Below the pieces are notes generated by a model, which was not told where the DNA came from, searched no databases, and was given only the letters and a program-made list of their open reading frames with translations. Source: Alphaproteobacteria bacterium (lineage in GTDB: Bacteria > Pseudomonadota > Alphaproteobacteria > CAAGCB01 > CAG-977). From it: a stretch of 37,222 nucleotides of DNA. The position numbers and the translations under genes are program-made. The stretch spans positions 1-37,222 of the forward strand of contig JAFYCE010000096.1 of NCBI GenBank assembly GCA_017539865.1, in the 5' to 3' direction. Shown here one piece after another: positions 26,256-37,222 of this stretch (position 1 is its first letter; each line of letters starts with the position of its first letter).

Positions 26256-27482
26256 TTATCTGCCCGAAACCAGATTTTTAAGTTTTTTGGCAATACCCAA
26301 CTTGTCACAAAGACTTTCTCCGGGTTCTTTCGGGTTGTAAAATCTTCTGTAATAATGAGAACTCCCTTGGCCTACATTAAATGTTTTACCGGACAATGCG
26401 TCTTTAAATTCGATATCGTGTATTCCCATGCTTTTGGAAGAACGATGATTTTTTTTCATAAATGTGGTTACCGACAAGATAGGAGAAATCATCAAATCGA
26501 TTTTGTAACGGAACAAAGATTCCGAAACGCGCGCCGGTTCATTGGAATCTTTTACGCCTTTCAAGTAACAATTCCCGTCATAATCCTTGCAAACCGATTT
26601 CAGAATTTCCGGTGTCGTTTTGTTTTTGCAGAATTTTGTCGGATCGTTCGATTCTTCCATAACTTTGGAGATTTTGTCGCATTCGATTTTCACCCAATCT
26701 TCTTTACGGAAAGATTTTTCCTGCAAATAAGAAACGACTGCCGCGGTTTTTTCATTGCCCGCCTTTTTGTAAGCGTCATAAATCTTTTCATTGCCGCCAT
26801 TCCGTCTGAACGCTTTTAAAATTTTCGGATTTTTGTCTTTCATTTCTTCGGCAAAGGTCAGTTGCGCCGTTATCGCGTCGGCCTGACAAACTTCCGCCGT
26901 TGCCAGATAGGCGTTAACCGTCAAATCCATAGACTGAGTCTTTCCGGTTTCCTGTTGCCAGACGGTGCGTGCGGCGTGAACCAGAGACAACGCTCCCGAT
27001 TCCGGTGACCAAATCGAATTCAGCATTACCTTTTTATGTTCCGGATCGATATGGGGGGCGACGGTGTTTTCATAATCAAAATCAATAGAATAGCCGTTTT
27101 TCTTTAAAACATCCAAAGACTTCCGGCCGATGTCACTTTCGGACAGCATGGCTTCCAAACGCTCGGCTTTCTTTGCTTTGGCTTCCGGCTTTTGCGAAAA
27201 GTATCTGTGCAGTCGAAATATGCCGGCTATCGAACCGGAAATCATTCTGGTATCGCCGGCATGACGCATCATTTCGTCAAATCTCATAACGAATTCTATA
27301 TCGTCAGGGAAGCGTCGGTGCATTTCGTCCACATCCATCCCTTTCATCTCGTCCACCCGTTCATGCATGGCATTTATATTCTTGCCGTAATTAACAAGGT
27401 TTCCGAAAAAGCCCAGTCCGTTATTGTATTCCTTTTCGGCTTCTTTATATTCGGGGTTCTGTTCTTTCTCGTAATAGTCCAT
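26256..27482 (-). CDS. DUF6782-like protein with degenerate metallopeptidase motif
   Basis: A 408-residue protein without signal peptide or membrane segment. Residues 130-210 resemble the DUF6782 putative metallopeptidase family: a strand region (KKVMLNSIWSPE), a helix at LVHAARTVWQQ where relatives have an HExxH-type LxHExRH, and a following helix with AEVCQADAITAQLTFAEEM. Here His169 remains, but the glutamate is Ala170 and the second His is Thr173, so zinc catalysis is doubtful. The C-terminal third is basic and unrecognised. GGAGG precedes the ATG, and a strong promoter lies upstream. It is a stand-alone gene. Confidence 0.55.
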   Translation of the reverse strand: MDYYEKEQNPEYKEAEKEYNNGLGFFGNLVNYGKNINAMHERVDEMKGMDVDEMHRRFPDDIEFVMRFDEMMRHAGDTRMISGSIAGIFRLHRYFSQKPEAKAKKAERLEAMLSESDIGRKSLDVLKKNGYSIDFDYENTVAPHIDPEHKKVMLNSIWSPESGALSLVHAARTVWQQETGKTQSMDLTVNAYLATAEVCQADAITAQLTFAEEMKDKNPKILKAFRRNGGNEKIYDAYKKAGNEKTAAVVSYLQEKSFRKEDWVKIECDKISKVMEESNDPTKFCKNKTTPEILKSVCKDYDGNCYLKGVKDSNEPARVSESLFRYKIDLMISPILSVTTFMKKNHRSSKSMGIHDIEFKDALSGKTFNVGQGSSHYYRRFYNPKEPGESLCDKLGIAKKLKNLVSGR

Positions 27483-33813: not shown

Positions 33814-34188
33814 TTAATGGGGCCCCACACAACAACATCCGTTTAAAAAGCAGAGGCCTGTCTTCTTGCAGTTTACCGGAGTATTCCCGTCTGAACAGGT
33901 TATTCCGGTGCAAAGATCAACACAAGGATTCCCCGGCCCGCCCTTTCTGTATTGTCCGGCAGGACAGGTACTCAACGAAAGAAGCTTTGCTTCGGAACCA
34001 TTTACTGAACCGCCGCATCCCGAATTGTTCAGCACACGATCGTTGCTGTAATAATCCTGTTTTGATATCTGTCCCACTTTACAGGCTTTGGCAATCAAAA
34101 ACGGTTTGCCCGTGTCGATACCGTCCGCCGAAGAAACGGAACAAGGCAGAAAAACAAACAAAGCGAAAACGCAAAATAATTTTTTCAT
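33814..34188 (-). CDS. small secreted cysteine-rich protein
   Basis: A 124-residue protein with a signal peptide (MKKLFCVFALFVFLPCSVSSA) and about a dozen cysteines in the mature part, including a CPAGQYRKGG segment and a terminal CFLNGCCC cluster. I do not recognise a family; the CPAGxY piece resembles the ephrin-receptor-like / GCC2-GCC3 repeats of its neighbours. AAAGGAGC precedes the ATG at 8 bases. The gene follows the large cysteine-rich gene by 12 bases and is very likely cotranscribed with it, ending at the terminator shared with rsmD. Confidence 0.82.
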   Translation of the reverse strand: MKKLFCVFALFVFLPCSVSSADGIDTGKPFLIAKACKVGQISKQDYYSNDRVLNNSGCGGSVNGSEAKLLSLSTCPAGQYRKGGPGNPCVDLCTGITCSDGNTPVNCKKTGLCFLNGCCCVGPH

Positions 34189-34200
34189 GACAATGCTCCT

Positions 34201-35820
34201 TTATAATACACAGCAACGTCCGTCGTTGGAATGTTTCAACGGCTCCGGGCAGCTGAGGGGCGTAATCGGAGGAAGGCATTTTTTGTTTTCAGAATTCCAA
34301 GTATATCCATCTTTGCATTGGTCGCAGGTGTCTGTACTTTGACATTTTAAGCAGTTAGCCGAGCATCTTGTCGATTTTATCGGACAGATATTATCAGTCG
34401 CATCGTTCGTTTCGCAGAAAACACCGTCGGAACCTTCAGTGTACAACTTGTCTTTATACCAACTGCATCGATCCATGTCTAAAAAATAAGCGGTGTCGGC
34501 TAGAGTGCATGTGCATTCAATCTCTTGTCCGACAGTGTTGGCTGAGCAACGAGCTACGTTGCTTTTGTATTTCCCAAGTGCCTTAAACTGGGTGATGATG
34601 TCGTTTTCAGTTCCCGGATAAAACGACTCAGTACTGTCTTTTCCTACAGAACCTTTCTTATCGGTAAACATGATGGAATATTCCTTTACCTCTTTGCAAT
34701 AACCGTTTTCCAGTCTGAAACCGCTGCTGCATTCGGTACAGTTGCTAGACGTACATTTTTTACAGCCGTTTGAACAGTATTTTGCTACATATTGACAGTT
34801 GGGATGAGAGCTTGAATATCCGTCGATAACATCACAGAACCCTGGCAGGGAAGTCGGAGAGTTTATCCATGCCTCGCATCGGCTTTTGTCTTTAAAATAG
34901 CCGTGCCAGGAAGAACCGGCTCCCGAACAACTGCAGATGACTTTTTTATTTTCCTTATCGGTAACGCATCTATAATACTCTTTATTCCCATACAGATAGC
35001 CTATGTAAGCATCTACCTCTCTGGAGTTTTTTTCTTCGGAGTCAAACTTCCCGCTTTTATCATAGAACTCAAACGTATACTTTTCTTGTTGAATGCATTG
35101 ACCGTTTTCTAAAGTATAGCCAGAGTCGCAGGATTGACACCAAACTTTGCCTTTTTCATAAGCATAAGTGCATTTTGTACACCCCGTCGGACAAGTCTTG
35201 CATTTTTCAATACCTTTGCCTGATACCTCATCTGAATATTTCCCCGTCGGACAGGATTGAGGATTTCCGTTATTCATATAGCAGTTATACCACGCGACCA
35301 AATCTTTGCCATTAGGGCAATGACCGCAAGAGGGACATGATGAGCATTGACCGTTGTTTTTTACGTAATAGTTACCGACGCAATGCGAACAAAAAGGGAC
35401 GCCGTCTTTAACATCACATTTATCGCAATTATAGGGACAGGGCAAATAACATCCTTTATATTCCGAAAGGTCTATTTTATGATATTTAACAGGCGTATCT
35501 GTTCTGGGAATACTTTGACCGTTATACGTTGTGTCTTTTTTCCATGCGGCTTTATTCGTACATACAAGATGGAAATAATTTTTTCCGCCTTCTTCCACCT
35601 TAAAATAAGGGGACTTATCCTCTCCTTTAGTACTACATTTCGGAGCTGCATTTGAAGATATATAGCAATTTTGTCCTCCCAAAGTTATGGAACAAGCCAC
35701 CGGTTCCCCATCACTGCAAAGTTGCACTATTCGTCCATTTGCAGGTTCAGTTTGCTGTCCAAATGCATTTTGCGAAAAACATAAAAAAAGAATAAAAGAA
35801 AGTTCCCAAAGCCGCCGCAT
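34201..35820 (-). CDS. large secreted cysteine-rich repeat protein (copy A)
   Basis: A 539-residue protein with a signal peptide (about 21 residues, ending AFG) and a mature part full of CxxC pairs, resembling furin-like, TNFR-like or ephrin-receptor-like repeats and, superficially, Giardia variant surface proteins. Two copies of an approximately 125-residue module are visible (about 34680-35085 and 34270-34680). Each begins YxxxFxDKxG, has a CxCxxA...YFxDxxRC core and ends in CxxC repeats with a GYxxEN-like motif. No membrane anchor or sorting signal is seen at the C-terminus. The start is ATG 35820 with GGAGGGGGCT directly upstream; this leader is part of a perfect 26-bp inverted repeat shared with copy B. 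It is followed by the small cysteine-rich gene. Confidence 0.85.
   Translation of the reverse strand: MRRLWELSFILFLCFSQNAFGQQTEPANGRIVQLCSDGEPVACSITLGGQNCYISSNAAPKCSTKGEDKSPYFKVEEGGKNYFHLVCTNKAAWKKDTTYNGQSIPRTDTPVKYHKIDLSEYKGCYLPCPYNCDKCDVKDGVPFCSHCVGNYYVKNNGQCSSCPSCGHCPNGKDLVAWYNCYMNNGNPQSCPTGKYSDEVSGKGIEKCKTCPTGCTKCTYAYEKGKVWCQSCDSGYTLENGQCIQQEKYTFEFYDKSGKFDSEEKNSREVDAYIGYLYGNKEYYRCVTDKENKKVICSCSGAGSSWHGYFKDKSRCEAWINSPTSLPGFCDVIDGYSSSHPNCQYVAKYCSNGCKKCTSSNCTECSSGFRLENGYCKEVKEYSIMFTDKKGSVGKDSTESFYPGTENDIITQFKALGKYKSNVARCSANTVGQEIECTCTLADTAYFLDMDRCSWYKDKLYTEGSDGVFCETNDATDNICPIKSTRCSANCLKCQSTDTCDQCKDGYTWNSENKKCLPPITPLSCPEPLKHSNDGRCCVL
34628..35002 (-). repeat. inverted homologous arm within copy A
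   Basis: This part of copy A matches 36848-37222 of copy B in inverted orientation, with small gaps. The core 34859-34963 is identical over 105 bases to 36893-36997. The window ends inside the B arm, so the true extent may be larger. Confidence 0.9.
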
Positions 35821-35843
35821 AGCCCCCTCCAAAGAAACAGAAC
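35818..35843 (-). repeat. left 26-bp inverted repeat containing RBS and start of copy A
   Basis: Reading on the minus strand, this is identical over 26 bases to 35959-35984 on the plus strand. It begins with GTTCTGTTTC and ends with GGAGGGGGCTATG, so it includes the ribosome-binding site and start codon. Identity stops abruptly at both ends. Confidence 0.95.
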
Positions 35844-35853
35844 ATTATTTTTA

Positions 35854-35882
35854 ATGATAGTCATTGCATGTATTTTTGTAAA
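35854..35882 (-). promoter_or_regulatory. strong candidate promoter facing copy A
   Basis: On the minus strand, TTTACA (35877-35882), exactly 17 bases, and TATCAT (35854-35859), each one mismatch from the sigma70 consensus. The predicted transcription start is near 35847, just before the left inverted repeat, so the mRNA leader would consist of little more than the repeat itself. Confidence 0.72.
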
Positions 35883-35958
35883 CAAAATTTGAACAAACCG
35901 TTTTTTTTTCTCTATTTCTTTTCATTTTTAGAACAAAAACGACTCCTCTTGAAAAAAG

Positions 35959-35984
35959 GTTCTGTTTCTTTGGAGGGGGCTATG
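35959..35984 (+). repeat. right 26-bp inverted repeat containing RBS and start of copy B
   Basis: The partner of 35818-35843. It holds GGAGGGGGCT and the ATG of copy B. The 115 bases between the two repeats (35844-35958) hold the promoter for copy A and a run of nine T (35901-35909), but only weak promoter-like sequence towards copy B. Confidence 0.95.
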
Positions 35985-37222
35985 AAGCAAAAAAACGCAT
36001 ATTCCGGTTTGTCCTTATTTATCTGTTTTGTGCTTGTCACTCTGTCTTTAAAAAGTGAAGCGTATGCTTGGCCATGTTCTTCTCAATCAGATGTTACAAA
36101 TAAAACTTCCAGTTATTTGTGCGATGATTTGCATCCCTACCCTTGTGAGGATACTACTGTCGGAAACTGTCAATATCCTTCCAGCAATTACTCAGATACG
36201 GATAATTACTGGTTTTCTACTAAAACAAAGTCGGTAAACATAAGTGGTATAAACCATACAGTCTTTTATGCCATTTGCAAAGGATATAGAGAAACAGGCG
36301 CACCCTCCCCTAATGTTGCTACTTTTGCCCCATATATTGCCGGAGCAAATCGGACAATTTGTTCAGCCAAATGTCCGACAGGTTGTTCATCCTGTTCCAT
36401 CAAAAATAAAAAGGAAGGCCTTTTGAAGTGCGGCGGATGCTCTTCCGGCTATACGAAACAAGGGGATTTATGCTGTCATTCGGGTTATTATGTTCCTACA
36501 CATAATGCTTCCAATTCCTGCACTAAATGTCCGGACAATTATAAAACCTGTTCCGGAAATTCATTTACGTGTAAAGCCGGATTTTACAAAAATGGTAATA
36601 CCTGCAAAGCTTGTCCGGCGGGAACATATTCGGCGGACGGAAACACCGCCGCCTCTTGCACAGCCTGTCCGACGGAATGTTCCGCCTGCACGTCGGCGTC
36701 AGTTTGTACAGCCTGTAGCGATGGTTATGGTTTAATCGACCACAGTTGTGTCAAAACCGAGACCTATACGATTGAGTTTTATGATAAAAGCGGGAAGTTT
36801 CATACCGAATCAAAAACAGGGACCCCCAAGAATGTAAGTGTTTATACAGGCTATCTGTATGGGAATATTGATAAACATTATTATAGCTGCGCTACCGATA
36901 AGGAAAATAAAAAAGTCATCTGCAGTTGTTCGGGAGCCGGTTCTTCCTGGCACGGCTATTTTAAAGACAAAAGCCGATGCGAGGCATGGATAAACTCCCA
37001 GTCGGGGTTCTGTGATGTTATCGACGGATATTCAAGCTCTCATCCCAACTGTCAATATGTGGCAAAATACTGTTCGCGCGGCTGTAAAAAATGTACATCG
37101 TCTAGCAACTGTACCGAATGCAGCAGCGGTTTCAGACTGGAAAACAGTTATTGCAAAGAGGTAAAGGAATATTCCATCAAGTTTACCGATAAGAAAGGCT
37201 CTGTAGGAAAAGACAGTACTGA
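35982..37222 (+). CDS. large secreted cysteine-rich repeat protein (copy B, 3' end outside window)
   Basis: An open frame of 413 codons running off the right edge without a stop. It starts at ATG 35982 with GGAGGGGGC upstream. A signal peptide ends at about SEAYA, followed by a unique cysteine-containing region to about residue 125, then CxxC repeats (KCPTGCSSC, CPAGTYSADG, ACPTECSAC, typical of ephrin-receptor-like/GCC2-GCC3 repeats). From 36762 it has the same YxxEFYDKSGKF module as copy A, nearly identical in protein sequence, and a second module begins at about 37168. The N-terminal regions of A and B are unrelated, so the pair is mosaic. Function is unknown; secretion and surface exposure are inferred from the signal peptide and disulfide-type repeats. 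Confidence 0.85.
   Translation, partial: MKQKNAYSGLSLFICFVLVTLSLKSEAYAWPCSSQSDVTNKTSSYLCDDLHPYPCEDTTVGNCQYPSSNYSDTDNYWFSTKTKSVNISGINHTVFYAICKGYRETGAPSPNVATFAPYIAGANRTICSAKCPTGCSSCSIKNKKEGLLKCGGCSSGYTKQGDLCCHSGYYVPTHNASNSCTKCPDNYKTCSGNSFTCKAGFYKNGNTCKACPAGTYSADGNTAASCTACPTECSACTSASVCTACSDGYGLIDHSCVKTETYTIEFYDKSGKFHTESKTGTPKNVSVYTGYLYGNIDKHYYSCATDKENKKVICSCSGAGSSWHGYFKDKSRCEAWINSQSGFCDVIDGYSSSHPNCQYVAKYCSRGCKKCTSSSNCTECSSGFRLENSYCKEVKEYSIKFTDKKGSVGKDST
36848..37222 (+). repeat. inverted homologous arm within copy B
   Basis: The partner of 34628-35002 in copy A, including the perfect 105-base core 36893-36997. It is cut by the window edge. Confidence 0.9.

What the first reader, a model, noticed from the sequence alone, without database searches (positions are those of the whole stretch)
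35818..35984. Candidate invertible (phase-variable) promoter between two divergent cysteine-rich surface-type genes
A perfect 26-bp inverted repeat flanks 115 bp that contains one strong promoter (TTTACA-17-TATCAT) directed at copy A and only weak promoter-like sequence towards copy B. Identity stops abruptly at both repeat ends, the repeats include the RBS and ATG of each gene, and the predicted transcription start lies at the repeat boundary. Inversion of the segment would hand the same promoter and the same leader to copy B. This resembles known invertible promoters of surface antigens. The alternative is a duplicated gene start whose leader has been conserved. No recombinase is visible in the window.
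Basis: partly seen in the sequence, partly recalled or inferred. Interest (0 to 1): 0.87.

Follow-up and report, generated by a model that had tools for sequence, protein, structure and literature searches.

The report
Probable invertible promoter between paired genes
A stretch of about 115 bases, flanked by mirror-image copies of one 26-base sequence and carrying one strong promoter, sits between two back-to-back copies of a cysteine-rich secreted-protein operon; similar stretches elsewhere in the same genome and a promoter-flipping type of recombinase suggest that it can flip to switch which copy is on, but no DNA reads were available to show flipping.

Summary
35818-35843 and 35959-35984 are a perfect 26-bp inverted repeat (31/33 over 33 nt), by far the strongest such repeat in 925 kb of this genome. 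One good sigma-70 promoter inside it (TTTACA-17-TATCAT, 11.4 bits) faces copy A; the best facing B is background (6.0 bits). Both sides are two-gene operons: B continues in contig C56. They are paralogues with unrelated N-terminal parts and near-identical 3' parts, so the identical leader is not simple inheritance.

New evidence: the element has relatives at C31, C65 and, more weakly, C64. All have inverted 18-bp near-dyad cores 97-101 bp apart. The central dinucleotide always agrees within a locus (TT, TT, AT, GT) but differs between loci, as serine-invertase sites require. At C65 the conserved promoter points away from the only adjacent gene. The genome encodes a recombinase above NCBIfam's cut-off for Mpi-family master DNA invertases.

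Most likely (about 0.58): one of a small family of invertible promoters, perhaps flipped in trans by that invertase. Main rival (about 0.27): a fixed divergent promoter with leaders homogenised by gene conversion. Inversion itself is not shown; no reads or second strain were available.

The parts
33814..34188 (-). A2: small secreted protein, second gene of operon A
   Evidence: ORF; its paralogue B2 follows B on contig C56
34201..35820 (-). Copy A: Cys-rich protein with apparent signal peptide, 539 aa
   Evidence: ORF; 52 Cys; no Pfam match
35818..35843 (-). Arm at A: perfect 26-bp repeat = leader, ribosome-binding site and ATG of A
35833..35850 (-). 18-nt core at A: AAATAATG-TT-CTGTTTCT
35854..35882 (-). 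Promoter TTTACA-17-TATCAT facing A; same place in C31 (TTTACA-17-TATTAT) and C65 (TTTACA-17-TACTAT)
35844..35958 (.). 115-bp segment proposed to invert
   Evidence: homologous to C31 and C65 intergenic elements
35952..35969 (+). 18-nt core at B: AAAAAAGG-TT-CTGTTTCT
35959..35984 (+). Arm at B: perfect 26-bp repeat = leader, ribosome-binding site and ATG of B
35982..37222 (+). Copy B: Cys-rich protein, cut by the contig end; its 3' end and B2 most likely begin contig C56 (L011:3-727)
34628..34985 (.). Near-identical 3' block of A (92-98%), inverted relative to 36871-37222 in B
36871..37222 (.). Near-identical 3' block of B, partner of 34628-34985

Best explanation
35844-35958 is a promoter segment that can be inverted by site-specific recombination at the two inverted arms. 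In the assembled orientation the sigma-70 promoter drives operon A (A + A2). After inversion the same promoter would drive operon B (B + B2), because each arm keeps an identical leader, ribosome-binding site and ATG with its own gene. The switch would thus choose between two secreted Cys-rich proteins that share C-terminal parts and differ in their N-terminal parts. It is one of a small family in this genome (C71, C31, C65, probably C64), likely served in trans by one invertase; the Mpi-family serine recombinase on contig C103 is the best candidate. Shown: repeat, promoter, element family, core agreement, the recombinase gene. Inferred: that inversion occurs, that this recombinase does it, that B is off now.
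For: Strongest inverted repeat in 925 kb, with a promoter inside. Homologous elements: C31 (alignment score 97, shuffle maximum 44) and C65 (57 against 37); C64 found by the profile (E 2e-6) and independently in an unbiased repeat scan. Inverted 18-nt cores are 101, 98, 99 and 97 bp apart. The true pairing of arms is the best of 105 possible, the central dinucleotide agrees in every locus while varying between loci (TT/TT, TT/TT, AT/AT, GT/GT; only 3 of 105 pairings, the true one included, match all centres), and the cores are imperfect dyads around it. C31: promoter faces its gene; C65: the conserved promoter faces away from its only gene. NCBIfam NF009949 'master DNA invertase Mpi family' 281 bits, cut-off 272, for the C103 recombinase; two more at 246.
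Against: No reads or second strain show the other orientation. No recombinase within 37 kb left or 12.8 kb right; the Mpi-type gene is on a contig with a relaxase-like protein, and such genes also act as plasmid resolvases. Inversion alone does not need or keep 26 identical bases through the ATG. About 100 bp between sites is short for a serine invertase. The arm-pairing statistics rest on four loci (p about 0.01 to 0.03), and the C65-C31 and C65-C64 similarities are not significant on their own. B might use a promoter that the sigma-70 matrix does not see.
Confidence: 0.58

Rival explanations
1. A fixed divergent promoter region between inversely duplicated operons. The leader and start region stay identical by gene conversion between the inverted copies or by selection on translation initiation; the relatives at C31 and C65 are old duplicates of the same two-way promoter in which one side lost its gene. 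B-type genes would use a different, non-sigma-70 promoter (AAACGACTCCT is shared by B and the C65 gene).
For: The whole A-A2 / B-B2 unit is an inverted duplication with patchy, near-identical 3' blocks, as gene conversion gives. Identity ends exactly at the ATG. The AAACGACTCCT stretch upstream of B recurs upstream of the C65 gene. In every single-gene locus the gene could be served from its own side.
Against: It does not predict inverted cores that agree in the central dinucleotide within a locus but not between loci, nor a conserved TTTACA promoter at C65 that only reads into a terminator, nor retention of the second arm at C31 where no gene follows it.
Confidence: 0.27
2. The arms are paired operators of a dimeric regulator that loops about 100 bp of DNA over the promoter.
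For: Near-dyad A-tract/T-tract cores at nearly constant spacing, 97-101 bp, in four loci.
Against: No reason for the centre to match within a locus and vary between loci; no regulator identified.
Confidence: 0.1
3. A low-copy miniature transposable element with terminal inverted repeats that brought a promoter to several genes.
For: About 150-bp repeat family with inverted ends, not found in 60 relatives by pattern search.
Against: Only four diverged copies; similarity in C71 and C31 runs into the ribosome-binding sites; no target-site duplication seen by eye; the relatives' ends beyond the cores are not symmetrical.
Confidence: 0.05

Closest known systems
[quoted passage not shown] PMC4747536)
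   Same: Short segment with a promoter between inverted repeats, several loci per genome, surface-related genes, a serine recombinase of the same NCBIfam family encoded in the genome
   Different: Here the arms contain the ribosome-binding site and ATG and serve two divergent operons; core motif and promoter type differ; inversion not shown; a 1.95-Mb genome outside Bacteroidales (alphaproteobacterial by inference from its gene content)
Gut invertons catalogued by PhaseFinder (PMC8748976, PMC11892184)
   Same: Found by the same anatomy: inverted repeat, promoter inside, surface or glycan genes next to it
   Different: Those are called from reads in both orientations, which were not available here; Proteobacteria have few per genome (PMC8748976)
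Campylobacter fetus sap promoter inversion (own knowledge, not checked here)
   Same: One promoter between divergent paralogous surface-protein genes with conserved starts, alternating between them
   Different: There a segment of kilobases inverts by homologous recombination over long conserved gene starts; here about 100 bp with 26-bp arms
Salmonella Hin/hix (PMC11868660)
   Same: Serine invertase, imperfect-dyad 26-bp sites with a 2-bp centre (site details from own knowledge)
   Different: Segment of about 1 kb that encodes the invertase; one target side; different site sequence

Membership tests
Invertible promoter (inverton) | Inverted repeats flank an intergenic segment | tested here: met
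   26/26 bp perfect, 115-bp segment
Invertible promoter (inverton) | Promoter inside, directed outward | tested here: met
   11.4 bits toward A, conserved in C31 and C65
Invertible promoter (inverton) | Both orientations present in a population | not testable with these tools
   No reads; one assembly; no homologous element in other species of the genus
Invertible promoter (inverton) | A recombinase acting on the repeats | tested here: inconclusive
   Mpi-family invertase gene on C103, none near the element; action not shown
Mpi-type promoter family | Several loci in the genome with related inverted repeats | tested here: met
   C71, C31, C65, C64; cores 97-101 bp apart
Mpi-type promoter family | Recombinase of the Mpi family | tested here: met
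   NF009949, 281.3 bits, cut-off 272
Mpi-type promoter family | Repeat sequence matches the B. fragilis Mpi site | not tested
   The defining paper (PMC193581) is not held
Serine-invertase crossover site | Imperfect dyad with an identical 2-bp centre in both partner sites | tested here: met
   Dyad matches 4-7 of 8; centre identical in 4 of 4 loci
Giardia VSP-like family (Pfam PF03302) | Score above Pfam cut-off | tested here: not met
   B 23.5 bits, cut-off 31.4; A no match; the likeness is Cys-rich composition

The most novel reading that the evidence does not exclude
A regulon of at least four invertible promoters under a single Mpi-family invertase in a small genome that looks alphaproteobacterial, in which one element works as an either/or switch: the same promoter, with identical leader and start codon waiting on both sides, alternates between two paralogous secreted-protein operons whose N-terminal parts differ.
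Probability: 0.35. Interest if true: 0.72.

Novelty: new variant of a known kind. Interest (0 to 1): 0.55.

Why it matters
If true, promoter inversion controls secreted proteins in a little-studied lineage outside Bacteroidales, where such loci are reported as rare (PMC8748976), and does so as a two-way selector with translation starts built into the repeats. The sites are defined well enough (four loci, 18-nt cores) for existing metagenome reads to test directly.

Tried and rejected
Tight association with a nearby recombinase: none on C71 or C56 by Phage_integrase or Resolvase. FimB/FimE-type invertase: the short tyrosine recombinase on C24 is a fragment of an integrase, and the C49 and C75 proteins are Xer-type. 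Known RNA element: no Rfam match in the window or in the sampled loci. Relatives outside the genus: none by protein, genome-contig scans by protein and by leader pattern empty, viral contigs empty. More family members: 13-genome profile search gave only AT-rich background beyond the four, pattern search of 61 genomes only C31 and C64, matrix scan of the sampled 47% no further pair. Promoter direction at C64 and at the C17 repeat cannot be decided, so they are not used as evidence on orientation. The single-site motif with two mismatches is no more frequent than its control, so only the paired arrangement carries weight.

Full report
Setting. The window is the whole contig C71 of an unnamed 1.95-Mb, 131-contig genome (93% complete). 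Its last 3 kb hold operon A (A 34201-35820 and A2 33814-34188, minus strand) and, divergently, copy B, cut by the contig end. Contig C56 begins with what is almost certainly the rest of B followed by B2, a paralogue of A2. The locus is therefore an inverted duplication A2-A-[segment]-B-B2, next to RluB and RsmD genes on one side and PpiD and TpiA genes on the other.

Observation. In an unbiased scan of 925 kb of the genome for inverted repeats with loops of 30-600 bp it scores 53; the next is 34.8. The 26-mer occurs nowhere else in the genome with up to 3 mismatches. A weight-matrix scan gives 11.4 bits for the promoter facing A and 6.0 for the best facing B (matrix frequencies are approximate E. 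coli values from memory).

Not plain inheritance. Coding sequence right after the two ATGs is unrelated (about 45% nucleotide identity over the first 120 codons), while the 3' halves are 94-96% identical. A leader that is identical beside such divergence needs homogenisation or selection.

Relatives of the segment. BLAST found C31:25115-25268 and C65:107-165; full alignments cover the whole segment with scores of 97 and 57 against shuffle maxima of 44 and 37. A profile of the three found C64:8061-8206 (28 bits). C64 also came up independently in the repeat scan. C64 is significantly similar to C31 (48 against 41) but not to C71 or C65. Next to these elements are a DUF6782 putative metallopeptidase gene (C31), a secreted protein cut by the contig end (C65) and a gene that looks like rfbF, a nucleotide-sugar gene (C64).

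Architecture. All four have two inverted 18-nt cores, outward orientation, 101, 98, 99 and 97 bp apart. Core form: A-rich, G, two bases, CT, T-rich. The central two bases are TT/TT (C71), TT/TT (C31), AT/AT (C65), GT/GT (C64). Among the 105 ways of pairing the eight arms, the real one gives the highest identity, and only 3 pairings (the real one included) match all centres. None of the relatives was chosen for being an inverted repeat, so this is not selection bias, but the sample is four loci. Serine invertases need identical central dinucleotides in both partner sites (established knowledge), so this is what an invertible segment predicts.

Orientation. TTTACA-17-TATNAT-like promoters stand at the same place in C71, C31 and C65. 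At C31 the promoter faces the gene. At C65 it faces away, into a terminator, while the only gene lies on the other side. That is what one expects if such segments are sampled in either orientation. The rival reading, a two-way promoter with a second, unrecognised promoter on the other side, remains possible: AAACGACTCCT upstream of B recurs upstream of the C65 gene.

Recombinase. The genome has nine Phage_integrase and seven Resolvase matches. The tyrosine recombinases examined are Xer-type or integrase-like. The C103 serine recombinase passes the NCBIfam cut-off for 'master DNA invertase Mpi family' (281 against 272), and two near-identical ones on C88 and C49 reach 246. Best plasmid-borne relatives, 50-55% identical, carry the same name. 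C103 also carries a relaxase-like gene, so the recombinase may belong to a mobile element; its link to the segments is a hypothesis.

Relatives of the organism. None of the other six genomes of the genus has DNA similar to the segment. One (G005) has a single Cys-rich gene followed by an A2-like start at the same place after rsmD, with an unrelated leader. In three others (G001-G003) the place after rsmD is taken by an acidic repeat protein, with a PEPCK gene following. The element is thus recent or lineage-specific.

Verdict. Invertible promoter about 0.58, fixed divergent promoter with homogenised leader about 0.27, paired operators about 0.1, miniature transposon about 0.05. The decisive data, reads in both orientations, were not available.

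Noticed in passing
L151 (G000:C17) 59-176: A perfect 18-bp inverted repeat (TAAAAAAACCACCCTTTA) with an 82-bp loop at a contig start, upstream of a possible gene; different core motif. Could be another invertible segment.
   Followed up: partly
L080 / G000:C64:8061-8206: Between the two cores upstream of the rfbF-like gene lies a second 12-bp perfect palindrome (TTCAAACATTCG-N6-CGAATGTTTGAA), not followed by a T run; operator-like.
   Followed up: no
34628-34985 and 36871-37222: Long near-identical inverted 3' blocks of A and B could recombine and swap C-terminal parts and A2/B2; the contig ends inside this block.
   Followed up: partly
26256-27482: A second DUF6782 putative metallopeptidase gene lies in the window; in relative G003 (L048) a DUF6782 gene lies next to a Cys-rich secreted protein, and the C31 element drives a DUF6782 gene. 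Possible functional link.
   Followed up: partly
L044:1930-2230 (G005) and L048:7420-7700 (G003): Cys-rich genes in relatives have long, structured-looking leaders ending in terminator-like hairpins just before the ribosome-binding site; no Rfam match. Possible attenuator.
   Followed up: partly
L046, L042, L043, L047: In relatives a long acidic protein with many EYEYVEAP repeats sits after rsmD.
   Followed up: no
L028, L034 (G000:C88, C21): A divergent Resolvase-domain protein of about 195 aa lies next to the Mpi-like gene on C88 and again on C21; it lacks the usual N-terminal YxRVS motif with the catalytic serine.
   Followed up: no
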